A stretch of DNA of 34,490 bases, from assembly GCA_030696315.1 (NCBI GenBank), contig JAUYSM010000057.1, positions 1-34,490 of the forward strand, in the 5' to 3' direction. The notes under the pieces are model-generated. The model was not told the origin of the DNA, searched no databases, and saw only the letters and a list, made by a program, of their open reading frames with translations. Numbering within the stretch: position 1 is the stretch's first letter; each line of letters begins with the position of its first letter. Of the stretch, positions 15,784 to 34,490 are shown one piece after another. Origin of the DNA: Pseudohongiella sp. Lineage in GTDB: Bacteria > Pseudomonadota > Gammaproteobacteria > Pseudomonadales > Pseudohongiellaceae. Both the position numbers and the translations under genes were made by a program.

Positions 15784-16920
15784 GTGAAACACGGTTTTTG
15801 GCGCGGGATGCTGTTGTTGTGTGTTGTGGCAGCATCCACATCAGTGCAGGCGCAAAGTGTCGACTTTTCGGGTGATCTTCGATTTGGTTACATCTCATTT
15901 GATCGTGATGAACGCAACGGCAGCACATCCGATGACGCGCAATGGCGTATGCGTGTGCGCGCGGGAATGTTGTGGACAATAAACGATACCTGGACTTTTA
16001 AGGGGCGTTATTCCGCGCGCGTGCATGATTCCCGCAACCGCAGTGGTTTTGTTGGTTTGTTTGAGGCCATGGGGTCAGGCGGTCCGACCATCGCGCCGGG
16101 GCAAACTGCCGTGGATGAGTTTTTTGTGCGCGCGCGTTACGGCAAGTGGGATCACCGCTTGGGGCGATTTCAAACCAACAGTCGGCTGATCGGTCTGGCC
16201 AGCAAGTCGTTCAGTCGCACAAATTCTACCGGTTGGGATGTCGGCTGGACGGACGGCATACAAAGCACCTACCGCGCCGACCACGGTGTGAATTACACCG
16301 CTATCATCGAGCGAAATGACAAAGACGGCCCCAGTAATCTGCGACGCTCCCCACTGCGCTTTGACAAGTCCGCCAGCCGTGCCGGTTATTATCTGGGGTT
16401 GGATGCCGCCAATACCGATGGTTTCTGGGCGCAGCGCTCACTGGATCTCACATATATCCCGAGCGCGTTATATTTCAATGGCATGGCTGCCGGGCAGCAA
16501 CGGGATTATTTTGGCCTGAGTGGACGCCTGGCAACGCGAGTGACCATTCATGATCAGATAAAACTGGTGTCGGGCATTCAATTGGCGTGGGCACCACAAA
16601 CACAGCGCCTTGCCGTTGCTGATCTGCCGGGTACGGGCGACACAAAAGGCACCGGTTGGCAGCTCTCTTTCAACGTGATTGATGTTGTGCCTGGTCAGAA
16701 TATCTCGATGAACTATGGGCAAAACGAAGCGGGCTGGTTGTTATCAACAGATTTTGTGGGCAATCAATCAGTCGCCGAACTTCGCCATTCCTGGTTTATC
16801 AGGCCCGGCCGTTTGCTGGAGACTCGAATTCATCAACGCAAAGATCTGAATCGGCTGAGCACCGCTGTCCGCAAACGTGTAGAAACCGACATGTACGTGC
16901 GCTACAGCATCAGTTTCTGA
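15784..16920 (+). CDS. Outer-membrane beta-barrel protein, porin-like (paralogue 1)
   Basis: This 378-residue secreted protein has a signal peptide (basic start, hydrophobic LLLCVVAAS, likely cleavage VQA-Q at 23/24). The rest alternates polar and hydrophobic residues and ends in Phe (VRYSISF), the terminal aromatic recognised by the BAM complex. It begins with GTG 15784, preceded by an AGAGGAGAG ribosome-binding site. It is closely similar along its whole length to the next gene; for example both contain NYTAIIERNDKDGPSN and SRTNSTG-DVGWTDG. A porin or specific channel is likely; substrate is not evident. It follows msrA by 21 bp. Compared with its paralogue it has no Pho-box-like sequence of its own. 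Confidence 0.8.
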   Translation: MKHGFWRGMLLLCVVAASTSVQAQSVDFSGDLRFGYISFDRDERNGSTSDDAQWRMRVRAGMLWTINDTWTFKGRYSARVHDSRNRSGFVGLFEAMGSGGPTIAPGQTAVDEFFVRARYGKWDHRLGRFQTNSRLIGLASKSFSRTNSTGWDVGWTDGIQSTYRADHGVNYTAIIERNDKDGPSNLRRSPLRFDKSASRAGYYLGLDAANTDGFWAQRSLDLTYIPSALYFNGMAAGQQRDYFGLSGRLATRVTIHDQIKLVSGIQLAWAPQTQRLAVADLPGTGDTKGTGWQLSFNVIDVVPGQNISMNYGQNEAGWLLSTDFVGNQSVAELRHSWFIRPGRLLETRIHQRKDLNRLSTAVRKRVETDMYVRYSISF

Positions 16921-16931
16921 TCCGTGAACAA

Positions 16932-16949
16932 AGGAGCTTTGCTGCTCCT
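16932..16949 (+). terminator. Hairpin after porin paralogue 1
   Basis: AGGAGC (16932-16937) and GCTCCT (16944-16949) form a 6-bp stem 12 bp after the stop at 16920. The following bases are C-rich instead of T-rich, so intrinsic termination is doubtful. The stem and trailing C-run resemble the core of the GGAGCAATGCTCC palindromes at 18.35-18.51 kb, so it may be a decayed copy. Confidence 0.35.
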
Positions 16950-17026
16950 CCCCCAAGGCTGTTGCCACACCCTCGCTTCATTCCCCTATGCTCTTGTCCT
17001 GGTGCCTGCAAAGTCCGATTTGATCT

Positions 17027-17088
17027 TTGTCATGCAAATGTCATAAAACTGTAGTTAAATTGCCACCGTTTTGTCATGTGACTGAATC
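17027..17088 (+). promoter_or_regulatory. Pho-box-like direct-repeat array upstream of porin paralogue 2
   Basis: TTGTCAT (17027-17033), ATGTCAT (17038-17044) and CTGTAGT (17049-17055) are 7-mers separated by 4-nt spacers, giving the 11-bp period of PhoB sites (consensus CTGTCAT with AT-rich 4-nt spacers). Another TTGTCAT at 17071 followed by CTGAATC at 17082 is in phase, exactly 44 bp from the first. A TAAATT at 17056-17061, about 11 bp after the best two repeats, can serve as -10. It would give a leader of roughly 95 nt. Control by PhoB is inferred; the repeat spacing is directly visible. Confidence 0.6.
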
Positions 17089-17164
17089 GTGACAACAAAA
17101 CAAGAGTCATTCAAAAACCGATCGACAGGTGCGGAGCCTGATGATCTTGTGGGGGAGAATACAG

Positions 17165-18301
17165 TTGAAACAACTTTCAAAGATGCTGGCAGTGGTGTCT
17201 ATTGTCGGGGCAACAGCGTCAGCCGCTCAGGCACAAGATATTGATTTTTCGGGCGATCTGCGCTTTGGTTTTGCGGGTTTTGAGCGTGACGAACGTAACG
17301 GCACTGAAACCAACGATGACCAGTTCCGCTTGCGCGTGCGCGCAGGTTTGCAGTGGAACATCAACGACACCTGGTCCTTTAAAGGCCGCTATGCTGGCCG
17401 CGTGCACGATTCACGCAATCAGGGTGGTTTTGTGCATTTGTTTAATGCGCCAACGGGCGGCGGCCCATCAGTCGCGGCAGGTGAAACAACGCTGGATGAG
17501 TTTTTTGTGCGTGCACGCTACGGCAATTGGGATCATCGTATTGGACGCTTTCAGAGTAACAACCGTCTGGTGGGTGTGGCAGCAAAATCCTTCAGCCGCA
17601 CCAACTCAACCGGTTTTGATGTCGGCTGGACAGATGGCCTGCAAAGCACGTACCGCTCCGACCACGGTCTGAATTACACCGCCATTATTGAGCGCAACGA
17701 TAAAGATGGTCCAAGCAACGTACGTCGCTCGCCGTTGGGATTCGACAAGTCCTCCAGTCGTGCCGGTTATTATCTGAGCGTTGACGCCGCGGATACCAAA
17801 GGACTCTGGGCGCAGCGTTCGGTTGATATCACCTATATTCCGTCTTCCTTATATGACAACGGTTTTGCAGCAGGCCAACCACGTGATTACCTCGGTGTCA
17901 CCGCTCGACTGGCAACGCAGGTAAACATTTACGAGCAGATGAGACTGGTCAGTGGGTTTGAACTGGCATGGGCACCGGAAACCCAGACCAACGCTGTGGC
18001 CAATTTGACCGGTAGTGGTGACACTGGCGGCAGCGCCTGGCAAGTGTCCTTAAATCTGATGGATATAAAACCCGGCCACAGTGTAGGGTTGGTTGTTGGT
18101 GAAACGGATGCCGGATGGTTACTATCTACAGATTTCCCCGCCGGACAGTCTCTTGCCGAGTTTCGTTATGCCTGGGTTCCGATGTCAGGTCACATTCTTG
18201 AAACACGTATTCGCGAACGCAAGGATCTGAGTCTGTTGCGTAATGCGGTCAACAAACGCGCTGAAACAGACGTCTATTTCCGGTACAGCATCAGCCTGTA
18301 A
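17165..18301 (+). CDS. Outer-membrane beta-barrel protein, porin-like (paralogue 2), possibly phosphate-starvation induced
   Basis: This is a 378-residue secreted barrel protein. The frame is open from ATG 17129, but TTG 17165 is preferred. It is preceded by GGGGGAG, removes 12 residues that do not look like a signal peptide, and makes the protein exactly as long as paralogue 1. Signal cleavage is likely AQA-Q at 23/24. The mature start DIDFSGDLRFGFAGFERDERNG aligns with paralogue 1, and the C-terminus is again an aromatic/hydrophobic strand (FRYSISL). Tandem duplication explains the pair. Together with the Pho-box-like array upstream, an anion or phosphate channel is a reasonable hypothesis. 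OprO/OprP membership needs a profile search. Confidence 0.8.
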   Translation: MKQLSKMLAVVSIVGATASAAQAQDIDFSGDLRFGFAGFERDERNGTETNDDQFRLRVRAGLQWNINDTWSFKGRYAGRVHDSRNQGGFVHLFNAPTGGGPSVAAGETTLDEFFVRARYGNWDHRIGRFQSNNRLVGVAAKSFSRTNSTGFDVGWTDGLQSTYRSDHGLNYTAIIERNDKDGPSNVRRSPLGFDKSSSRAGYYLSVDAADTKGLWAQRSVDITYIPSSLYDNGFAAGQPRDYLGVTARLATQVNIYEQMRLVSGFELAWAPETQTNAVANLTGSGDTGGSAWQVSLNLMDIKPGHSVGLVVGETDAGWLLSTDFPAGQSLAEFRYAWVPMSGHILETRIRERKDLSLLRNAVNKRAETDVYFRYSISL

Positions 18302-18308
18302 GGTGCCA

Positions 18309-18513
18309 GGGGACGGAGGTGCCAAAGGCAGCTCCGTCCCCATGCGGCAAGAAGGGGTCGGAGCAATGCTCCTCCGACCCCGGTTTGCCAAATAGAAACA
18401 AGGGGTCGGAGCAATGCTCCTCCGACCCCAATAAAAAAACAGGAAAGTGCGTTGAATTTGGTCTATGAAACTTGGTGTGAAGTTTGGGGTCGGAGCATTG
18501 CTCCTCCGACCCC
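18309..18513. repeat. Cluster of four REP-like palindromes
   Basis: Four short palindromes follow the second porin gene. The first (18309-18341) has outer arms GGGGACGGAG and CTCCGTCCCC around TGCC-aaa-GGCA. The other three (18354-18381, 18402-18429, 18486-18513) share arms GGGGTCGGAG and CTCCGACCCC around CAATGCTC or CATTGCTC and are almost identical. The first type recurs inside smc and downstream of it. Such families are usually dispersed REP-type elements mobilised by RAYT transposases; no such transposase gene is in the window. The last copy lies 30 bp upstream of the nuclease ATG. They may also act as transcript-end structures. Confidence 0.85.
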
Positions 18514-21242: not shown

Positions 21243-24200
21243 TCAGTTCACGCCGTACAACAGCTGTGTGCCAGTGGCTGTGATTAGCTTCACGTCCAAC
21301 TTGCCGTCACCGTTGGCATCGAGGTACTGCACTGCGTTGCCGAAGGCATCTTTGTTGGTGTTGTGGAACACACGCTCTTCTGGCGTTGGAGCCAGCACAA
21401 AGAAGTTAGGTTTGAACACGCCCACAGTCGGTACCGTCACAAAACCGGTGTTACGGTCAGTGCTCGGTGTCAGGCCAAAGGCGCGTACGCTGTCATTGAA
21501 GGTTGATGACTCAATGAACGGCACAACATGTTGCAGCGCGCCATTGGCACATCGCACACCAAACGCGTAACCCGCACTGTTCAAAGCGCCAGTTGGCTCA
21601 ATGAAGCTCAGATCACCACACGCGGCCAGATCAATACCGGTGAGGTTGTCGTACGCAAAGGTGCCGGAGAAGCGCTCACCGTTACCAACTTGCAGAGTAA
21701 TGCTGGCATTCGGATTCAGGCGGAACGGGAAGCCTGAGCGTTCAACAGCAGTGACAAATTTCACCAGGCTGATAGGCGCAGGTGCAATTTCAATCGCAAA
21801 ACCGTTGTTCACAATCAGACCGCGGCCGTCAGCACGGAAGCGGATACCGGTTGGTACGGTTGCAGGCACGGATCTTACGCCCACGATTGCACCCGCGTAG
21901 GTTTCACCTGGCAAGCTCAGAGTCACCAGACCCGTCGCATCGTCAACCTTGATCTGTGCTGCGCCAGATTCCAGGTTGGTCACGCTGGCGATACGGCCAT
22001 TGGCGTCAATCATCGTGACGGTCAACGCCTCAAGACCAATTGCACCAAACAGGTTGGTAATTGCCTGCAGCGCGCTTATGCCGCCAATCTGCACAGTACG
22101 TGGGTCAACCGCTGTGCCGGATGCTGCTGCCAGGCGATCAACTAAACCTGCAGGCGGGTTGGCACCAGCATTTGCAGTTGCTTCCTGGTTCTTTTGTACC
22201 TGTGTCTTGGTTGTTGTCGGCGGAATCTTCAGTGCCGAATCAATCACCGTCTGCAGGGCGTTCGGGTTAGCGCTCAATGCTGTCCTGATCTCGCTCTCAG
22301 ACAGATTGCTGCCCAGTTCAGCCAGCGCTTGTGCAGCCACCTTGGTTGCAATCTCCAAACTGGCAGCGGCTGTTTTGGCCACCAGCTCAGGGGTTGCAGG
22401 GATACCCAGTCTCTGATTGCTTTCGGTGATGCGGTTGGCTGCATTCACAACATCCAGCAATTCGTCAGTATTGGTAACGTTTCTTGCGATATCAGTGGTG
22501 GTATCTAGCAGGTTGCTACTGGCTTGTTGAACCTGTTGCTCCTCCTCGATAGTCAGACCAACACCGGTGCTTGCCGCGTTTTCAGCCATTTGTGACAGCA
22601 ACAAGCTGCTGTTTGCCACGGTCTCTTTTGCTTGCGCATTGATCTGGTTTCTGGTGTTCTGATCGGTAGCGCCAGCACCTGCACGGGTTGCGCTGCTGAC
22701 TGCCTGAGACATTGCACCCAGTCCGTTTGCGATAGCAGAGTTACTGGCTGAACCGGTATCGGCCGCGCGACGAAGACTCGCAGCCTTGGCCGCTGCTTCC
22801 AGTGCCGCAGCACCTGCTTCTGCTGCCGCGGCTTGTGGGTTGGTTTCGATCAGTGTGCGCAGACGGGCAGCAGTGTCACGCTGGTTCTGAGCGCCCTGAT
22901 TTACTTCAGCCTCTGTGGGCGGCGGAATAAATTGCTGAACAACAACGGTTGTTGATGCCGAGCTGGTCATGCCTGAGTTATCGGTTGCCCGGAACTCAAC
23001 AGAGCTTGTGCCATCAGCCAGCACCAAGTCAGCAGCCAGGCCTGTTGATACCACAGTGCCATTGACCAGCCACTGTGAAGTCACAATAGTGCCGTCAGCA
23101 TCAGTAGCAGTGCCAAACAGTGACACGGGCTCGCCCGGGCGGCTGTTGGAGTCTGGTATGTTCAGGTTAGCGGTCAGAATGCTGACAACGGGTGCAACGG
23201 GTGCGTTGACGGTCAGCGTTGCTGTTGCTGTGCTGGTCAGACCCACGTTGTCAGTCGCGCGGAAACTCACTGTATTAGCGCCTTCCGGCAGGTTCAGCGT
23301 TGCGGATGTGCCATTGGCAACCACAGTGCCACCGACTAACCATTGTGAAGACACAATGGTGCCATCAGAGTCAGTTGCTGAGGCAGAAACTGTTACGAAC
23401 TCGCCAGGCACACCGTTAGTGTCAACAATCGTGCGGCTGCCGCCATCAATTGCAACGACCGGTGCGGCCGGGGCCAGCACGTTGATTGTTGCTGACGTTG
23501 TGGTGCTGGCACCCAGATTATCAATTGCGCGGGCAGTCACAGTGGTTGAGCCGTTTGGCAACGACAGCACTGCACTGGCACCGGTGGCCACTACTTCGCC
23601 GCCTACCTGCCACTCTATCAGAGACACAGAGCCGCCTACGTCCGTGGCAACCGCCGTGACAGCAACGTCCTGGCCTGGCAGGCCATCGCTGTCTGGTACA
23701 GTTGTTGGAGCCGTGATGGTGATAACGGGTGGTGTGTTTGGCAATGCCGACACAACAGTCACTGTTGCAGTAGTGCTGGTACTCTGGCCATCATTGTCGG
23801 TCGCACGGAAGGTGACTGCAGTACCACCATCAGGCAATGTCAGTGTTGCGGACAGACCCGTGGCTACAACACTGCCACCGACCAGCCACTCAGTGCTGGC
23901 GATTGTGCCGTTTGCATCTGTTGCGGTTGCTGTCAGTACAACAGCTTCACCGGCGATGTTATTAGTGTCGGCAACGGTTCTGCTGCCGCCAACAATTGAC
24001 ACCACTGGCGCGATACGTGACACAACAGTGATAGTGGCACTGGCTGTTGAACTAACTCCTGTATTGTCGGTTGCCCGGAAGGTCACGGTATTGGCACCGT
24101 TAGGCAATGTCAGCGACGCACTGGTACCCGTCGCAACAACATTTCCACCTACCAGCCATTCAGTACTGACAATACTGCCGTCGGCATCTGCCGCTGCACC

Positions 24201-27068
24201 ACTGACGTCGACCGTCGTGACTCCCGTCACATTGGTGTGGTTAACCGTACGACTGCCGCCAAGAATGCTGACCACGGGCGCAACAGGTGCTGCGACGTTG
24301 ATATTCACAGATGCGCTGGCTGTCAGGCCCACGTTATCTCTGGCAGTGAAGGTAACAACGTTATTGCCGTTTGGAACAGGAATGCTGGTAGTCAAGCCTG
24401 TGCCAGCTGGTGCGCCGTTCAAAAGCCATGTTGTCTCAACAATGCTGCCATCCAGATCTGCAGCAGTCGCTGCAAAAGCAAGGGTTTCGCCCGGCAAGCC
24501 GTTGGTATCTATGACATTGCGGTCGCCGCCATTAATGCTGACAACCGGAACCACAGGAGGACGCACAGTGATGTTAACGGAGGCCGTTCTGACCAGGCCG
24601 ACGTTGTCGCGAGCGCGGAAGGTGACCGCTGTCACGCCATTTGGTACCTGAAGCTGAGCTTCCAGCCCTGTCGCAACCACTGCGCCAGCAATCAGCCACT
24701 CAGCTAGCGCAATTGTGCCATCCGGGTCACGTGCAGTACCTGTCACTGAAACCAGCTCGCCCGCCAGACCATTGGTATCAACGACAATGCGATCTCCACC
24801 ATTGATAGTGACGATTGGCGGTACCGGCGGTTGTACACGGATATTGACTGACGAGGTACTGATCAGGCCAACATTGTCAACGGCGCGAATGCTGACCACC
24901 GAGTCACCATTCGGCAATTGAATGGTGGGGGAGAGGCCACTGCCAGCCGGAGCACCGTCTACCAGCCATTCAATGCTGGCAAGGGTGCCGTCAGCGTCAG
25001 CTGCGGTTCCGGAGAACACTACTGGCTCGCCGTCGATCGCGTTAGTGTCAATAATGGTGCGATCACCACCGGCTACTGATGTGGTTGGCGGTATGGGCGG
25101 GCCAACGATGATGCCAACAGAAGCACTGGCAGACAAACCGCCAGCGTCGGTTGCTTTAAACTCCAGTGTCGATGAGCCGTCTGGCAGATCAACACTGATA
25201 GAGTCACCAGAACCAATTGAGGAGCCGTTCAGAATCCACTCGGTGCTGGTGACATTGTTTTCAGCGTCAATGACGGACGCAGTATACGTGACGGTCTCAC
25301 CTATTTTGCCATCGGTATCGATGATGCTGGTCGGACCGGTCACGCTGACCGTTGGAGACGTATTTGCCTCTTCCACAAAAATGGTAACCGAGGTTTCGCT
25401 CGACAGACCCAAATTGTCGGTTGCCTTAAAGCTAACCGTGTTGCTGCCGTTGTTGAGCACCGCATCCAGGCTAAGGCCAGAACCGGCGGGCGTGCCATTC
25501 ACAGTCCATTCAGTGCTGGCAATAGAACCGTTATCCGTTGCGCTTGCTGACAGTGATACGGTTTCACCGGCTTTGCCGTCGGTATCAATTTGCGTGAAGC
25601 TGCCTTGATTGATGGCAACAACCGGCGGTGTATTAACAGGCGCAAGCACGGTGATGGTTACTGAGGTTTCATCAGACAGGCCAGCGTTGTCAGTGGCCTT
25701 GAAGGTCACAACGGTCGGGCCGACCGGCAAGGTAGCCTTGATTGAGTTACCTGAGCCGGAAGAAACACCACCCACAAACCACTCGGTTGTCGCAATGGTG
25801 CCGTCCGCATCTGTAGCGCTCGCGGTCAATTCAACTTCTTCGGTTGCCAGTCCATCCGTATCAGCAACATCACGATCACCACCGTCGATGGAAACTTCAG
25901 GCGGCGTGGGCACACCGACTGTGATCACAACAGTGGAGTCAGTGACCGCGTCGTCATCGTCCGTTACGCGGAAGGTTACGTTGGTTTGACCATCAGGCAG
26001 CGCGATATTGGCTTTTGTACCGGTTGCAACTTCTGCACCGCCAACCAGCCATTTTGTTGATTTAATGGTGCCGTCAGAATCTGCAGCATTACCCGTCAGA
26101 GATACAGTTTCACCCGCAACACCATCGGTGTCGTTAAACGTTTGCGCACCACCTTCGATAGAGGCAGTAGGCGGTACGTTTGCAGGCGGCGCCACACAGG
26201 TGTCAGTAAAGGCTGTGGGTGCCGCAGCGGCAACGCCGCCCGCGCCCGCCACACTGAATTGACCTTGCACAGCAAAGGCAGCACTGAACTGCTCATTCAC
26301 GCGGAAGGCAGCATTGCTGACGGTTCCCAGCAACTCGAATACGCTGCTCAGTTCCGAGGCAGGACTCAGAGCACAAACGGTTCGTGCTTGCGGCAGCGGC
26401 GAAAAGCTACCGGCATTCACCAGACCAAAACGCACATCCGGGCCGGATGTCTTTTCGATCACAACGGTGTAAGTGTAATGCCCTGGCGTTGTATTGAAGG
26501 AATCAAAAATCGCATCAAAAATCGGGTTGGAGCCTCTCAATCGCGATACCAGCGTTGCGCCGTTAAATGACACGCTGCCGCCGCTGATCGAGATAGGACC
26601 ATTGGTGGCGCCGTTACTCAACAGGCGCGTAACGTTGGTAGCGTCGTCACGGCCGATAACCACCAGGTTTTGCGCTGGAATTGAGCCAGTCAAGGTGTTG
26701 CCACTGTTGCTGACCGTCATGTTCAATGTGCCGAGATAGGCTTCAATACGACGGTCAGAATTGTCGTCATCAATAACCACACCAACTTTAAAGGCGTAGG
26801 TGCCGTTAGTCTTGACGTCAGCTTCATTCACAAGGTTGAAGCTGAAGTTAGGGATGCCGAAGCTGTCCGCCAAGGGTACGCCGGTGACTGACGGGATAAC
26901 CCCGTTCACGCCCACCGTCACCGCTTGGTTAAACCCAGTATTTGAAATTGTGAGGGCACCATTCTCGATGGTGAAGTCATTCGCTGCGGCGTGGCTGCCC
27001 AGACCCGTCAGTACGCTAGCGATAGCGACACTGATCAACCGCTTTTTGAAATTTGTCCGACTTTTCAT
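21243..27068 (-). CDS. Very large secreted protein with twelve Ig/PKD-like repeats
   Basis: The protein has 1941 residues from ATG 27068, which is preceded by AGAGGGAA; an extra 13 upstream codons are open but lack a ribosome-binding site. A clear signal peptide (KKRLISVAIASVLTG, likely cleavage AAA-N near 29) is followed by a unique domain to about residue 300 containing two cysteines. Twelve tandem repeats of about 90 residues follow (300-1379), then an Ala/Gln/Asn-rich, probably helical region (about 1385-1660) and a unique C-terminal domain. DANGDGKLD at 1917-1925 resembles a calcium-binding loop. No transmembrane anchor, LPXTG or recognisable autotransporter barrel was seen at the C-terminus. 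A surface adhesin or extracellular scaffold is plausible. The neighbouring minus-strand barrel gene is separately terminated. Confidence 0.85.
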   Translation of the reverse strand: MKSRTNFKKRLISVAIASVLTGLGSHAAANDFTIENGALTISNTGFNQAVTVGVNGVIPSVTGVPLADSFGIPNFSFNLVNEADVKTNGTYAFKVGVVIDDDNSDRRIEAYLGTLNMTVSNSGNTLTGSIPAQNLVVIGRDDATNVTRLLSNGATNGPISISGGSVSFNGATLVSRLRGSNPIFDAIFDSFNTTPGHYTYTVVIEKTSGPDVRFGLVNAGSFSPLPQARTVCALSPASELSSVFELLGTVSNAAFRVNEQFSAAFAVQGQFSVAGAGGVAAAAPTAFTDTCVAPPANVPPTASIEGGAQTFNDTDGVAGETVSLTGNAADSDGTIKSTKWLVGGAEVATGTKANIALPDGQTNVTFRVTDDDDAVTDSTVVITVGVPTPPEVSIDGGDRDVADTDGLATEEVELTASATDADGTIATTEWFVGGVSSGSGNSIKATLPVGPTVVTFKATDNAGLSDETSVTITVLAPVNTPPVVAINQGSFTQIDTDGKAGETVSLSASATDNGSIASTEWTVNGTPAGSGLSLDAVLNNGSNTVSFKATDNLGLSSETSVTIFVEEANTSPTVSVTGPTSIIDTDGKIGETVTYTASVIDAENNVTSTEWILNGSSIGSGDSISVDLPDGSSTLEFKATDAGGLSASASVGIIVGPPIPPTTSVAGGDRTIIDTNAIDGEPVVFSGTAADADGTLASIEWLVDGAPAGSGLSPTIQLPNGDSVVSIRAVDNVGLISTSSVNIRVQPPVPPIVTINGGDRIVVDTNGLAGELVSVTGTARDPDGTIALAEWLIAGAVVATGLEAQLQVPNGVTAVTFRARDNVGLVRTASVNITVRPPVVPVVSINGGDRNVIDTNGLPGETLAFAATAADLDGSIVETTWLLNGAPAGTGLTTSIPVPNGNNVVTFTARDNVGLTASASVNINVAAPVAPVVSILGGSRTVNHTNVTGVTTVDVSGAAADADGSIVSTEWLVGGNVVATGTSASLTLPNGANTVTFRATDNTGVSSTASATITVVSRIAPVVSIVGGSRTVADTNNIAGEAVVLTATATDANGTIASTEWLVGGSVVATGLSATLTLPDGGTAVTFRATDNDGQSTSTTATVTVVSALPNTPPVITITAPTTVPDSDGLPGQDVAVTAVATDVGGSVSLIEWQVGGEVVATGASAVLSLPNGSTTVTARAIDNLGASTTTSATINVLAPAAPVVAIDGGSRTIVDTNGVPGEFVTVSASATDSDGTIVSSQWLVGGTVVANGTSATLNLPEGANTVSFRATDNVGLTSTATATLTVNAPVAPVVSILTANLNIPDSNSRPGEPVSLFGTATDADGTIVTSQWLVNGTVVSTGLAADLVLADGTSSVEFRATDNSGMTSSASTTVVVQQFIPPPTEAEVNQGAQNQRDTAARLRTLIETNPQAAAAEAGAAALEAAAKAASLRRAADTGSASNSAIANGLGAMSQAVSSATRAGAGATDQNTRNQINAQAKETVANSSLLLSQMAENAASTGVGLTIEEEQQVQQASSNLLDTTTDIARNVTNTDELLDVVNAANRITESNQRLGIPATPELVAKTAAASLEIATKVAAQALAELGSNLSESEIRTALSANPNALQTVIDSALKIPPTTTKTQVQKNQEATANAGANPPAGLVDRLAAASGTAVDPRTVQIGGISALQAITNLFGAIGLEALTVTMIDANGRIASVTNLESGAAQIKVDDATGLVTLSLPGETYAGAIVGVRSVPATVPTGIRFRADGRGLIVNNGFAIEIAPAPISLVKFVTAVERSGFPFRLNPNASITLQVGNGERFSGTFAYDNLTGIDLAACGDLSFIEPTGALNSAGYAFGVRCANGALQHVVPFIESSTFNDSVRAFGLTPSTDRNTGFVTVPTVGVFKPNFFVLAPTPEERVFHNTNKDAFGNAVQYLDANGDGKLDVKLITATGTQLLYGVN
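22931..26171 (-). repeat. Twelve tandem ~270-bp repeats encoding Ig/PKD-like domains
   Basis: Each unit begins PxVSIxGGxR, has a D(T/S)(D/N)G turn near position 15, an A-x-D-x-DG-(T/S)-I turn, then E-W-L-V-x-G, a LP(N/D)G turn, and ends VTFRATDN-G followed by SATITV. Unit length is 88-92 residues, close to 270 bp, and 12 units fill 3.24 kb. Middle and late units (5-12) are more alike than the first four. Asp-rich turns suggest calcium-stabilised beta-sandwich domains. Repetitive DNA of this kind can change copy number by recombination. Confidence 0.9.
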
Positions 27069-27333
27069 TTTATTCCCTCTGACTCTAAAAAATTCCAGCT
27101 GCAACACTTATGGTGCTACCAGCCATGCATCCCACACGGATCGATCTTAATATTTAAAATTAAATGCCGGCTTCAGGGCTTTGATTTGCAGGGAAACTTT
27201 GTCCGTTCCACACTGTTTAAAAGCACTAGAGCCATGCAAAATACTTCTGTTTTACAATCGGTTACATTCCCGCCAGAGGTCAAAATATCAGAAACTGCCC
27301 TATGCGCTCAATGTTAACCTTTAATAAAACTGC

Positions 27334-28866: not shown

Positions 28867-31800
28867 ATGCGTCTGAAAAGTATCAAACTCGCCGGCTTCA
28901 AGTCGTTTGTTGATCCCACCACGGTGAGCTTTCCGAGCAATCTGTGCGCGGTGGTAGGTCCCAACGGTTGTGGCAAGTCCAACATCATTGACGCCGTGCG
29001 CTGGGTGATGGGTGAAAGCTCAGCCAAGAATCTGCGCGGCGAAAACATGACCGACGTTATTTTTAACGGCTCGGGTGGACGCAAACCCGTGGGGCAGGCC
29101 AGCATCGAGCTGATTTTTGACAACAGCGACAACCGCATCACCGGCGAGTTTGCCAAGTTCAGTGAAATCTCGATCAAGCGCCGTGTGTCCCGCGACGGCG
29201 ACAATGTTTACATGCTCAACGGCACCAAATGCCGCCGCCGTGATATCACCGACCTGTTTTTAGGCACCGGTCTGGGCCCGCGCAGTTACTCCATCATCGA
29301 GCAAGGCATGGTCTCGCGGCTGATTGAATCGCGCCCGGAAGACCTGCGGGTGTTTATTGAAGAAGCGGCTGGCATTTCCAAGTACAAAGAGCGCCGTCGT
29401 GACACTGAAAACCGCATCAAGCGCACACGCGAGAACCTGGAGCGTCTGACCGACATTCGCGACGAGCTTGGGCGCCAGTTGCAGCATTTGCACCGACAAT
29501 CACAAGCGGCTGAAAAATATAAAGAATACAAGGTGCAGGAGCGTGATCTCACCGCGCAGTTTAATGCGCTGCGCTGGCGGGCGCTGGACGACGATGTCAG
29601 CACCAAACAAAGCGTCATTCAAGCCTTGGAAGTCCAGATTGAAGCGATTATTGCCGATCAGCGTGCACTGGACGCCACCCACGAACAACTGCTGCTGAAC
29701 CAGACCGATCTCAACGATCAGCTTGGCGAAGTACAAGCGCGTTTTTACGGCATTGGCGGCGATATTGCGCGCATTGAGCAGGCCATTGAGTTCCATCTGG
29801 AACGCATGAAGCAGCTGCGCCGCGATCTGGACGACAATCGGCAAAATTTCACCTCGGCACAATCCGAGATGGATACCGATGTCTTCAAGCTGGAAAATCT
29901 GCAGAACGAGCTCGACACACTGACACCCGATCTGGAGATGGCCGAGCATGCGCAGGAAGAATCCAGCATGCAGCTGGAAGACGCCGACGAGAAGATGCAG
30001 CACTGGCAGCAACAGTGGGATGAGTTTTCCCGCCGCTCCGAAGAGCCGCGCCAGACGGCTGAGGTCGAGCAATCGCGTATTCAGCAGCTGGAAAAAATTG
30101 TAGAGCGAGGCATTGAGCGCCGCACGCGATTGCGCGAAGAACGTGCCGCTTTGGGCGAGAACCCTGAGCAGGACGTGATTGACGAGTTGTCCATGCAGCT
30201 CACGCAGATGGAAGACGACATCGACGCGCAGCAAACGCGCAACGGCGATCTGGCCTCACGCATCGAACAGGAACGCACCCGCGGTCAACAACTGGCGCAT
30301 GAACTGGATCAGGCCCGCAGCCAGCTGCAACGCCAGAAAGGCCAGTTTGCCTCGTTGGAAGCCCTGCAAAAAGCCGCGCTCGGGCAAACCAACAACACCC
30401 TGAACAAATGGCTGGGCCAGCACCAGCTGGACAATCAGGCGCGCCTTGGCGAACACATCAAAGTCGCCGACGGCTGGGAGCACGCCGTCGAAGCCGTGCT
30501 CGCCGACACCCTGCAAGCCATCTGCGTCGACAACATCAACACCGTCGCCGCCGCGCTTGCCACCTTGCCCGCTGGCGTTGTGGCGTTAATCGAACCGGGG
30601 ACGGAGGTGCCAAGAACGGGGACTGAGCAAGGAACGGGGACGGAGGTGCCGAAGGCAGCTCCGTCCCCTGGGCCAACGTTTCTTGCCTCCCACATCACCA
30701 CCAGCATCGACCTCAGCGGTCTGCTCGCCGGCATCTACACCGCCGAGTCGCTGGATCAGGCGCTGAGCCTGCGCGCAACGCTGTCCGCCGGTGAATCCGT
30801 GGTCACCAAGCAGGGTTTGTGGCTGGGCCGCAACTGGATACGTGTGCGCAAATCGGTGGATGCCAGCGAGGGCCTGCTGACGCGCAAAGGCGACATGACA
30901 CGCCTGTCCGAGCAAATGGAAATGCTGCAAAATCAAGTGGATGAGCTGCAGGAACAGCAGCAGCTCAGCCGCGACAACTTGCGCGATCTGGAGAGCGAGC
31001 GCGAGGCGATTCAGCGTCAGATCGCCCAGATGAGCCGCGATTACAGCGAGCTCAAGTCCCGCCTCAGTGCGCGCATCATGAAAGAAGAGCAGACCACCCA
31101 GCGCCGCCAGCGTCTGCAATTTGAGCTGGAAGAGCTGCAGAAACAGCTGGAAATCGAGCAGGACAACATCACGCACTCCCGTGAGAATCTGCAAAACGCG
31201 CTCGACGCCATGGAACAAGACATCGAGCGCCGCGAATCACTGCTGCAGCAACGTGATGAACTGCGCCACACACTGGATCAGGTGCGCCAAAAAGCCCGTC
31301 ACGACAAAGACATGAGTCATCAGCTGCGTCTACGCGAGCAACTGTTACGCTCGCAAATCGCCGCCATGGACGATGCCAAAAAACGCATGAGCACCCAGGT
31401 GCAGCGTGCGCGTGAGCGCATCGAATCCATCGAAAAGCAGCTCAACGAATCCGACATGCCGCTGGAAGGCAAACGTATGGAGCTGGAGCAGCTGCTGCAA
31501 AAACGCCTCGACGTTGAAGAGCAGATGAACAAAGCCAAAACCGCGGCCGATGCCAACGAACATCAGCTGCGCGCGCTCGAACAACAGCGCATCGGCTACG
31601 AACGCAAAGCCGCCGGTGTGCGCGAACAGCTGATGGAAAGCCGCCTGAAAACCGAGGGCGATCTGGTGAAACGACAGGCGCTGGCGGATCAGCTGCGCGA
31701 AGCGCGTTACGATCTGCCAACCGTGCTCAGCAATCTGCCGGTCGACCTCACCGCGCAGACCTGTGAGGAAGAACTGGAAGCCATCGGCCAGCGCATCTCC

Positions 31801-32418
31801 CGACTTGGCGCGATCAACCTGGCCGCGATTGACGAATACGCCCAGCAGTCCGAGCGCAAAACCTATCTGGACGCGCAAAACGAAGATCTTGAAAAAGCGC
31901 TGGCCACACTCGAAAACGCCATTCGCAAAATTGACCGCGAGACGCGCACACGCTTTAAAGAGACCTTCGACAAAATCAACGCCGGCCTGCAGGAACTGTT
32001 CCCCAAAGTCTTTGGCGGCGGTCACGCATATCTCGACATGACCGGCGAAGATCTGCTCGACACCGGCGTGGCCATCATGGCGCGCCCGCCCGGCAAAAAG
32101 AACAGCACGATCCACCTGCTGTCCGGTGGTGAAAAAGCCATGACCGCCATCGCGCTGGTATTCTCGATTTTCAGGCTGAATCCGTCGCCTTTCTGTATGC
32201 TGGACGAAGTTGACGCACCCTTGGATGATGCCAACACCGCGCGCTACGGCCGCCTGGTCAAGGAAATGTCGGATTCCGTGCAATTTATCTTTATTACGCA
32301 CAACAAACTGACCATGGAAGTGGCCAACCAGCTGCTCGGCGTCACCATGCACGAGCCCGGCGTGTCGCGTATCGTGGCGGTTGATATAGAAGAGGCTGCC
32401 GAGCTGGCGGCGATGTAG
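28867..32418 (+). CDS. smc: Chromosome segregation ATPase SMC with repeat insertion in the hinge
   Basis: This 1183-residue SMC protein forms the ring-shaped condensin that folds and segregates the chromosome. The Walker A GPNGCGKS is at residues 31-38. Long coiled coils (about 165-500 and 660-1000) flank a hinge at about 505-660. The ABC signature LSGGEK is at 1085-1090 and Walker B FCMLDEVD has D1113/E1114. All ATPase motifs are intact. Within the hinge, residues about 577-601 (PGTEVP, then GTEVPKAAPSPGP) are translated REP-like palindromes, adding about 24 residues to a family length near 1160. The frame stays open. It is followed by zipA, the usual gammaproteobacterial order. The 282 bp upstream show no clear promoter. 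Confidence 0.95.
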   Translation: MRLKSIKLAGFKSFVDPTTVSFPSNLCAVVGPNGCGKSNIIDAVRWVMGESSAKNLRGENMTDVIFNGSGGRKPVGQASIELIFDNSDNRITGEFAKFSEISIKRRVSRDGDNVYMLNGTKCRRRDITDLFLGTGLGPRSYSIIEQGMVSRLIESRPEDLRVFIEEAAGISKYKERRRDTENRIKRTRENLERLTDIRDELGRQLQHLHRQSQAAEKYKEYKVQERDLTAQFNALRWRALDDDVSTKQSVIQALEVQIEAIIADQRALDATHEQLLLNQTDLNDQLGEVQARFYGIGGDIARIEQAIEFHLERMKQLRRDLDDNRQNFTSAQSEMDTDVFKLENLQNELDTLTPDLEMAEHAQEESSMQLEDADEKMQHWQQQWDEFSRRSEEPRQTAEVEQSRIQQLEKIVERGIERRTRLREERAALGENPEQDVIDELSMQLTQMEDDIDAQQTRNGDLASRIEQERTRGQQLAHELDQARSQLQRQKGQFASLEALQKAALGQTNNTLNKWLGQHQLDNQARLGEHIKVADGWEHAVEAVLADTLQAICVDNINTVAAALATLPAGVVALIEPGTEVPRTGTEQGTGTEVPKAAPSPGPTFLASHITTSIDLSGLLAGIYTAESLDQALSLRATLSAGESVVTKQGLWLGRNWIRVRKSVDASEGLLTRKGDMTRLSEQMEMLQNQVDELQEQQQLSRDNLRDLESEREAIQRQIAQMSRDYSELKSRLSARIMKEEQTTQRRQRLQFELEELQKQLEIEQDNITHSRENLQNALDAMEQDIERRESLLQQRDELRHTLDQVRQKARHDKDMSHQLRLREQLLRSQIAAMDDAKKRMSTQVQRARERIESIEKQLNESDMPLEGKRMELEQLLQKRLDVEEQMNKAKTAADANEHQLRALEQQRIGYERKAAGVREQLMESRLKTEGDLVKRQALADQLREARYDLPTVLSNLPVDLTAQTCEEELEAIGQRISRLGAINLAAIDEYAQQSERKTYLDAQNEDLEKALATLENAIRKIDRETRTRFKETFDKINAGLQELFPKVFGGGHAYLDMTGEDLLDTGVAIMARPPGKKNSTIHLLSGGEKAMTAIALVFSIFRLNPSPFCMLDEVDAPLDDANTARYGRLVKEMSDSVQFIFITHNKLTMEVANQLLGVTMHEPGVSRIVAVDIEEAAELAAM
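30597..30668 (+). repeat. REP-like palindromes inserted in frame within smc
   Basis: A full palindrome lies at 30636-30668, with arms GGGGACGGAG and CTCCGTCCCC around TGCC-gaa-GGCA. A left half-copy lies at 30597-30612 and a shorter GGGGAC trace at 30618-30623. The two main copies are in the same orientation, 39 bp apart. The block spans 72 bp, exactly 24 codons, so the smc frame is preserved. The palindrome differs by one loop base from the copy at 18309 and resembles that at 32455. Confidence 0.9.
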
Positions 32419-32424
32419 CTGACT

Positions 32425-32552
32425 GGGGACGGAGGCATGCCTCCAGCTTAGAACGGGGACGGAGGTGCCAAAGGCAGCTCCGAAACGGGGACGGAGGCAT
32501 GCCTCCGTCCCCTGGTTAAAAGGACAACAGACGGAGGCATGCCTCCGTCCCC
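32425..32552. repeat. Array of four REP-like palindromes between smc and zipA
   Basis: Four units fill most of the 150 bp between the two genes. Unit 1 (32425-32444) and unit 2 (32455-32482) each lack their final bases. Unit 3 (32487-32512) is a perfect 26-bp palindrome with half-site GGGGACGGAGGCA. Unit 4 (about 32530-32552) lacks its left GGG. Unit 2 has the TGCC-aaa-GGCA core seen in smc and at 18309; the others have a GGCATGCC core. The array starts 7 bp after the smc stop and ends 16 bp before the zipA start. It may affect coupling of the two genes. Confidence 0.88.
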
Positions 32553-32568
32553 TTAAAAAGGACCATAG

Positions 32569-34490
<1,922 letters not shown>

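What the first reader, a model, noticed from the sequence alone, without database searches (positions are those of the whole stretch)
30597..30668. REP-like palindrome inserted in frame inside the SMC hinge
A 72-bp block made of the same palindromes found in intergenic space at 18.3 kb and 32.4 kb lies in the hinge-coding part of smc. It adds 24 residues (Gly/Thr/Glu/Pro-rich) without breaking the frame. Short mobile palindromes normally avoid essential genes. Here one seems to have become protein sequence in the dimerisation hinge of a core chromosome-organising ATPase, probably in a surface loop after the VVALIEPG strand. The GTEVP motif occurs twice, showing partial duplication within the gene.
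Basis: partly seen in the sequence, partly recalled or inferred. Interest (0 to 1): 0.75.

Follow-up and report, generated by a model that had tools for sequence, protein, structure and literature searches.

The report
Mobile DNA palindrome inside SMC hinge
In a marine bacterium and most of the sister species examined, a short mobile-type DNA hairpin sits in frame inside the gene for the chromosome-organising protein SMC, has become a probably floppy loop of that protein, and differs from species to species largely in step with the hairpins elsewhere in each genome.

Summary
Confirmed and extended. The 72-bp block at 30597-30668 is one full and one partial copy of a REP-type palindrome, in frame in the hinge of smc. 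The genus is Pseudohongiella, judged from named relatives. Eleven of 14 genus genomes with an smc match carry REP arms in the hinge region; 0 of 26 examined relatives outside the genus do. It is not one frozen insertion: species differ in REP type, copy number and reading frame, one also in position. The smc copy matches that genome's own REPs best in 6 of 9 genomes. In G001 the REP arms found in smc, ligA and rapA are all GGGGTCGG, like the 50 palindromes listed for it, while smc arms of the ten other genomes are GGGGACGG. ligA and rapA each have two such sites. A RAYT-like transposase gene bracketed by these REPs lies beside ligA, 4.6-6.9 kb from smc in the three genomes where both share a contig. 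Best reading: a RAYT/REP population repeatedly colonises and overwrites tolerant loops of nearby essential genes. Intragenic REPs are published; the concerted turnover across several genes is the new part. No function of the insert, and no movement, is shown.

The parts
28867..32418 (+). smc gene, 1183 aa (SMC_N; SMC_hinge match at residues 526-635)
   Evidence: Pfam; ORF
30597..30668 (+). REP-derived insert in the hinge, residues 577-601
30597..30613 (+). partial REP copy (left arm only), first GTEVP
   Evidence: family D9
30636..30668 (+). complete 33-nt REP palindrome with a G-G mismatch at stem positions 11/23, second GTEVP
32425..32552 (+). intergenic REP cluster just after smc (subtypes with GGCATGCC and GGTGCC)
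18309..18341 (+). intergenic REP of the same 33-nt subtype as the smc copy
18349..18513 (+). three REPs of the GGGGTCGGAG type
   Evidence: family D8
32569..34490 (+). acidic repeat-rich open frame after smc, runs off the contig. I thought of zipA from recalled gene order, but Pfam gave no ZipA match. ligA and the RAYT lie on another contig (C39), inferred to be near from the gene order of relatives
   Evidence: sequence read; Pfam

Best explanation
The insert is a member of the genome's REP palindrome family, probably spread by the RAYT-like transposase encoded beside ligA, a few kilobases from smc. REPs land at many nearby sites; copies in essential genes survive only where they fall in a flexible loop, keep the frame and bring no stop codon. 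The copy is not frozen: REP DNA is added, partly duplicated, replaced or converted, so that the loop tends to keep pace with the REP type of that genome. In the protein it is most likely a tolerated, disordered loop without a function of its own. Shown here: REP identity, in-frame residence, restriction to the genus among the genomes examined, turnover, shared type of coding and other copies, a RAYT-like gene bracketed by REPs, and REP density around it in two genomes. Inferred: that this enzyme moves them, that the loop is neutral, and whether replacement is by new insertion or gene conversion.
For: REP arms in the smc hinge of 11 of 14 genus genomes and 0 of 26 outside. Of 21 forward arms in smc, 17 are in phase 2, 3 in phase 0, 1 in phase 1. 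In G008 arms begin at residue 559, before the strand they follow elsewhere. Longest match of the smc copy is to its own genome's REPs in 6 of 9 genomes, rank 2 in two, rank 3 in one; label permutation p about 1e-4 (which repeats after removing ligA copies). G001 is T-type in smc 6 of 6 arms, ligA 2 of 2, rapA 10 of 10 and in the 50 of 63 palindromes listed (four of the 50 lie in rapA); smc arms of the other ten genomes are all A-type. Enzyme: Y1_Tnp 55.8 bits, REP_Tyr_transpos 72.5 bits, below its cut-off of 80; palindromes stand 49 bp before it and across its stop codon. G008: 18 of 52 REP clusters within 50 kb of it, 1.57 expected if uniform; control, the second Y1_Tnp gene, 2 of 52. G006: 9 of 27, 0.59 expected. 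Hinge model pLDDT 91; ten-residue blocks 101-110 and 111-120 average 58 and 67.
Against: A random centre in G008 does as well within 50 kb in about 1% of cases and in about 3% within 25 or 100 kb, so clustering is clear but its focus on this gene is moderately supported. Six of 15 genus genomes show no such RAYT (G004, a 700-contig assembly, G007, G009, G011, G012, G013), yet G004, G007 and G013 carry in-gene REPs. The smc copies of G003, G010 and G013 do not match their own REPs best. G001 still has 7 A-type 11-mers and one rapA arm of G000 is T-type. One relative outside the genus, G055, has a long loop without REP arms, so loop length alone needs no REP. The GTAG tag described for RAYT substrates is seen only in part of the copies (GGTA before GGGG in 16 of 131) and not at the smc copy. 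No transposition was observed.
Confidence: 0.77

Rival explanations
1. One ancestral REP insertion in smc, inherited ever since, all later change being local recombination, gene conversion or hairpin-templated repair, without new transposition.
For: On the tree the label needs 3 changes, which one gain and two losses (G009, G011) would satisfy. All six of G000, G001, G003, G004, G010 and G014 have it. ligA site 1 in G000 and G001 has nearly the same half-element apart from the A-to-T change, which looks like conversion in place. Compensated stem changes between G000 and G004. The loop of G009, sister of G007, looks by eye like a decayed palindrome.
Against: Copies stand in three codon phases, in G008 also at another position, and G006 holds, by eye, a phase-0 remnant beside a phase-2 palindrome; a single insertion does not readily give this.
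Confidence: 0.3
2. The loop is kept by selection because it serves SMC, the REP being only raw material.
For: It persists in 11 of 14 genus genomes; it lies in the hinge.
Against: Residues and frame differ widely among species (GTEVPKAAPSP, NGDGGNKNGDGG, GSEAPQVPPTP, WGRRHASDP); G009, G011 and G012 do without; similar inserts sit in LigA and RapA.
Confidence: 0.1
3. A DNA- or RNA-level function of the hairpin inside smc (mRNA pausing or stability, or a chromosome site).
For: Strong hairpin (DNA z -5.1, RNA z -4.1); covariation score above all 500 shuffles.
Against: Copying of REPs gives the same covariation; the number of pairs changed on both sides was reached by 237 of 500 shuffles and the number of pair types by all 500; three genus members have no arms.
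Confidence: 0.1
4. Assembly error or contamination.
For: Palindromes do cause gaps: the G007 record has 180 N in this loop (gap or masking, not probed).
Against: Eleven genomes show in-frame arms, including assemblies of one (G008) and eight contigs (G006). Raw reads were not available.
Confidence: 0.02

Closest known systems
Intragenic GTAG/CGTC REPs (Di Nocera, De Gregorio and Rocco 2013, PMC3733652; abstract, sections 15 and 16 and found passages read)
   Same: Short palindromes read through inside genes, many for DNA replication and repair, among them a DNA ligase of O. terrae; in recB of two Xanthomonas species different REPs lie at about the same site.
   Different: A word search of the main text finds no smc or RapA. 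What I read does not describe coding copies changing type together with the other copies, nor a RAYT gene next to the targets. The supplementary gene list was not read.
Rickettsia palindromic elements (RPE)
   Same: Palindromes inserted in frame in many protein genes (as cited in PMC3733652; original papers not read).
   Different: Different sequence and lineage; PMC3733652 reports that CGTC repeats, to which it assigns RPE-4 and RPE-6, lack an associated transposase gene.
REPINs and RAYTs of Pseudomonas fluorescens (Bertels and Rainey 2011, PMC3116915; listing and found passages read)
   Same: REP palindromes in inverted arrangement tied to RAYT genes flanked by REPs.
   Different: Described there as randomly distributed in extragenic space, only 14 of the commonest 16-mers overlapping genes; here REPs are dense around the RAYT in two genomes and sit in conserved genes.
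TnpAREP/REPtron biochemistry (PMC8266576; found passages read)
   Same: A Y1 transposase recognising a REP hairpin with a GTAG tag; E. coli REPs have a stem mismatch.
   Different: Enzyme and REPs here are untested; the GTAG tag is present only in part.

Membership tests
REP element | short palindrome in many dispersed copies of one genome | tested here: met
   133 sites of GGGGACGGAGG, reversed control 0; hairpin folds
REP element | mostly extragenic | tested here: met
   Of 102 distinct sites examined, 17 lay within long open frames; 7 of these (smc 2, ligA 2, rapA 3) I judged to be in real genes, the rest by judgement not
GTAG-tagged REP, RAYT substrate | GTAG at the foot of the stem | tested here: inconclusive
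   GGTA directly before GGGG in 16 of 131 flanks, including a copy just before the RAYT; not at the smc copy
REPtron (RAYT gene with its REPs) | Y1_Tnp gene flanked by the same REPs | tested here: met
   L154 8707-9387, palindromes before the start and across the stop
REPtron (RAYT gene with its REPs) | protein reaches the curated RAYT model cut-off | tested here: not met
   NF047646 72.5 bits, cut-off 80; I therefore call it RAYT-like
REPtron (RAYT gene with its REPs) | the enzyme cleaves or moves these REPs | not testable with these tools
   needs biochemistry
In-frame intragenic palindrome (RPE-like) | element read through in frame in a conserved gene and absent from outgroup orthologues | tested here: met
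In-frame intragenic palindrome (RPE-like) | protein made with the insert | not testable with these tools
   no proteomics

The most novel reading that the evidence does not exclude
A living transposase-REP population rewrites loops of core DNA proteins (SMC, LigA, RapA) in concert with its own evolution: because the RAYT-like gene sits in the smc-ligA neighbourhood, its palindromes keep re-entering the same loops, so that parts of essential proteins track a genomic parasite rather than the host's own selection.
Probability: 0.5. Interest if true: 0.75.

Novelty: new variant of a known kind. Interest (0 to 1): 0.62.

Why it matters
It offers a natural experiment on how mobile DNA becomes protein: the same loops of essential proteins, filled with different versions of one element in sister species, with the presumed enzyme next door. 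It makes testable whether REPs spread locally, whether coding copies are converted in concert with the others, and how much insertion an SMC hinge tolerates.

Tried and rejected
Rfam scan of the window: 0 matches at the gathering threshold. Sequence search of solved structures with the hinge: 0 at E up to 0.01; the fold search found SMC hinges (best 5h69_B, E 1.1e-9). RAYT presence against insert on the tree: only 3 independent pairs, which cannot reach 0.05; that tree was a quick one (LG+G4, SH-aLRT only, 4 of 18 inner branches open). Palindromes in the hinge of other genera: among 74 hinge stretches (73 loci and the window) only Simiduia (L087) outside the Pseudohongiella-like ones has a 13-nt perfect inverted repeat, in the same loop; my rough estimate puts this near chance for so many stretches, and it was not pursued. 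Pfam on the frame after smc gave no ZipA match, only a low-complexity one under its cut-off. Paper searches: (at least 3 of 4 terms, 56 papers, 8 listed) showed nothing on REPs in smc among those listed, held 0 papers. Subscription papers and preprints are mostly not in that library.

Rows dropped. Of 52 genomes with an SMC match, 40 went into; G031 (partial; no arms in its fetched piece) and 11 others were not used. G016 and G048 came out truncated; their whole loci were checked (no arms). One search stopped with an error after 13 of 15 genomes. Own-genome survey: 102 distinct sites of 133, as only the first 100 places were listed; only the exact A-type 11-mer was surveyed. The nine-species test was first run with some ligA copies among the background; I noticed this on rereading, removed them and reran (same ranks, same p). 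In it G004, G007, G009, G011 and G012 were left out, and the background is incomplete for G000, G001 (50 of 63 listed), G014 (50 of 66) and G008 (13 of 18); repeats were entered once, and background copies may lie in genes other than smc, ligA and rapA. One search used 100 of 101 G008 sites, a rounded genome length, and for G006 a lower bound of the contig length. The seven units were picked by hand and the G000/G004 comparison was made after seeing it.

Full report
What is there. The window carries smc at 28867-32418 (+), 1183 aa, with a Pfam SMC_hinge match at residues 526-635. Bases 30597-30668 hold a partial and a complete copy of a palindrome that also stands between genes at 18309-18341 and, partly, 32455-32487. 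The complete 33-nt copy forms a stem of 14 pairs with one G-G mismatch at positions 11/23 and folds strongly as RNA and DNA. It belongs to a genome-wide family: 133 exact GGGGACGGAGG sites, reversed control 0.

Whose genome. Among the named hinge relatives the nearest (L074) and the third (L076) are Pseudohongiella metagenome assemblies, so I call the genus Pseudohongiella.

Relatives. In the alignment of SMC from 40 genomes the hinge loop after the strand VVALIE is mostly short outside the genus (G055 is an exception: long, but without REP arms) and in most genus members filled with REP-derived residues. Counting exact arms GGGG[AT]CGGAG or complement over the whole smc frame, 11 of 14 genus genomes have them, all between residues 559 and 646; 0 of 26 outside do. 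G009, G011 and G012 lack arms. G012 has neither the 11-mer nor a full palindrome in its genome; G009 has six 11-mers and four palindromes, but G011 has 43 and 12, so REPs in the genome do not guarantee an insert. The inserts differ: GTEVP...GTEVPKAAPSP here; G003 has three forward arms; G002 reads the palindrome in another frame as NGDGG; G001 has the T-type read as GSEA...PPTP and once as WGRRHASDP. By reading, the ten-base arms hold no stop codon in any of six frames.

Concerted change. The longest stretch shared between each smc insert and the REPs of nine genomes (copies in smc, ligA and rapA left out) is greatest for the own genome in six, second in two, third in one; permuting labels gives p about 1e-4 (backgrounds incomplete for four genomes). 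G001 is the clearest case: smc arms 6 of 6, ligA 2 of 2, rapA 10 of 10 are T-type, as are the 50 of 63 palindromes listed for it, whereas the smc arms of the ten other genomes are A-type. The split is not absolute: G001 has seven A-type 11-mers, one rapA arm of G000 is T-type, and this window has three T-type REPs. Between the smc copies of G000 and G004, whose SMC proteins are 97% identical, the four differences in the 33-nt unit are two complete base-pair changes; under random placement that has probability 0.002, a comparison made after the fact. Over seven hand-picked units 98% of cells pair and two pairs change on both sides; covariation score and cells changed on both sides exceed all 500 shuffles, but the number of pairs changed on both sides is reached by 237 of 500 and the number of pair types by all. 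I read this as a sequence shaped as a DNA palindrome, by copying or hairpin-templated repair, more than by protein need.

Other genes. Of 102 distinct own-genome sites examined, 17 lie in long open frames; I judged 7 to be in real genes: smc 2, ligA 2, rapA 3 (gene names). ligA has two sites, one within the stretch matched by the adenylation domain, one between the OB-fold and zinc-finger matches. Arms are found in ligA of G000 to G006, G010, G013 and G014, one arm in G008, none in G007, G009, G011 and G012 (G003, G004 and G014 from fragments). rapA has two sites, both filled in G000, G001, G003, G010 and G014; the fragments of G004 and G005 show one site each filled; the other eight genomes have no arms.

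The enzyme. A 226-aa Y1_Tnp protein is encoded on contig C39 beside ligA, with a REP palindrome 49 bp before it and another across its stop codon. It scores 72.5 bits on the NCBIfam RAYT model, below the cut-off of 80. A second, longer Y1_Tnp protein is found in all 15 genus genomes, the shorter type in nine; all nine have arms in smc or ligA. Six lack the shorter type and three of these still have in-gene arms. In the three genomes where one contig holds both, the match lies 4.6 kb (G008, only a 162-aa frame), 5.2 kb (G006) and 6.9 kb (G001) from smc. In G008 26 of 52 REP clusters lie within 100 kb of it, 3.1 expected; the second Y1_Tnp gene as control has 5; random centres do as well as the first in about 1-3% of cases. 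In G003 rapA with REPs is about 9 kb from the RAYT; in G006 and G008 rapA without REPs is about 56 and 417 kb away. I read this as local spread, with moderate support.

Structure. AlphaFold2 on the hinge with 74 sequences gives mean pLDDT 91; the blocks 101-110 and 111-120, most of the insert (model residues 97-121), average 58 and 67 and are coil. Fold search returns SMC hinges. The loop is probably flexible; its exposure and its place relative to the dimer interface were not measured.

Known or new. In-frame REPs in replication and repair genes were described in 2013, including different REPs at about the same recB site in two Xanthomonas species, with RPEs in Rickettsia cited there as earlier. 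The case here is a new variant: smc hinge, several conserved genes at once, change of type in step with the genome, and a RAYT-like gene next to the targets. The main text of PMC3733652 was word-searched for smc and RapA without a hit; its supplementary list was not read. That the concerted change is unpublished rests only and is not certain.

Limits. Everything is comparative sequence evidence. Function of the loop, movement by this enzyme and the replacement mechanism are inferences.

Noticed in passing
L154:9364-9387 and the end of rapA in L016: A REP supplies the last codons and the TGA stop of the RAYT-like gene itself (GGDGGIKI*) and of rapA (SGDGGIKN*).
   Followed up: partly
L087:4318-4349: The Simiduia smc hinge has a 13-nt perfect inverted repeat in the same loop, a different sequence.
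   Followed up: partly
L061, smc hinge of G007: A run of 180 N bounded by inverted REP arms in the same hinge loop; assembly gap or masking.
   Followed up: no
21243-27107: 1954-aa ORF on the minus strand with internal repeats spaced about 270 bp.
   Followed up: no
33995-34490: The open frame after smc has long Asp- and Pro-Glu-coding repeats up to the contig end.
   Followed up: partly
15784-18301: Two adjacent, similar ORFs (378 and 390 aa), apparently a tandem duplication (by eye).
   Followed up: no
L154:6523-8606: A PIN-domain ORF and a nucleotidyltransferase-like ORF with a neighbour of no Pfam match stand near REPs beside the RAYT-like gene.
   Followed up: no
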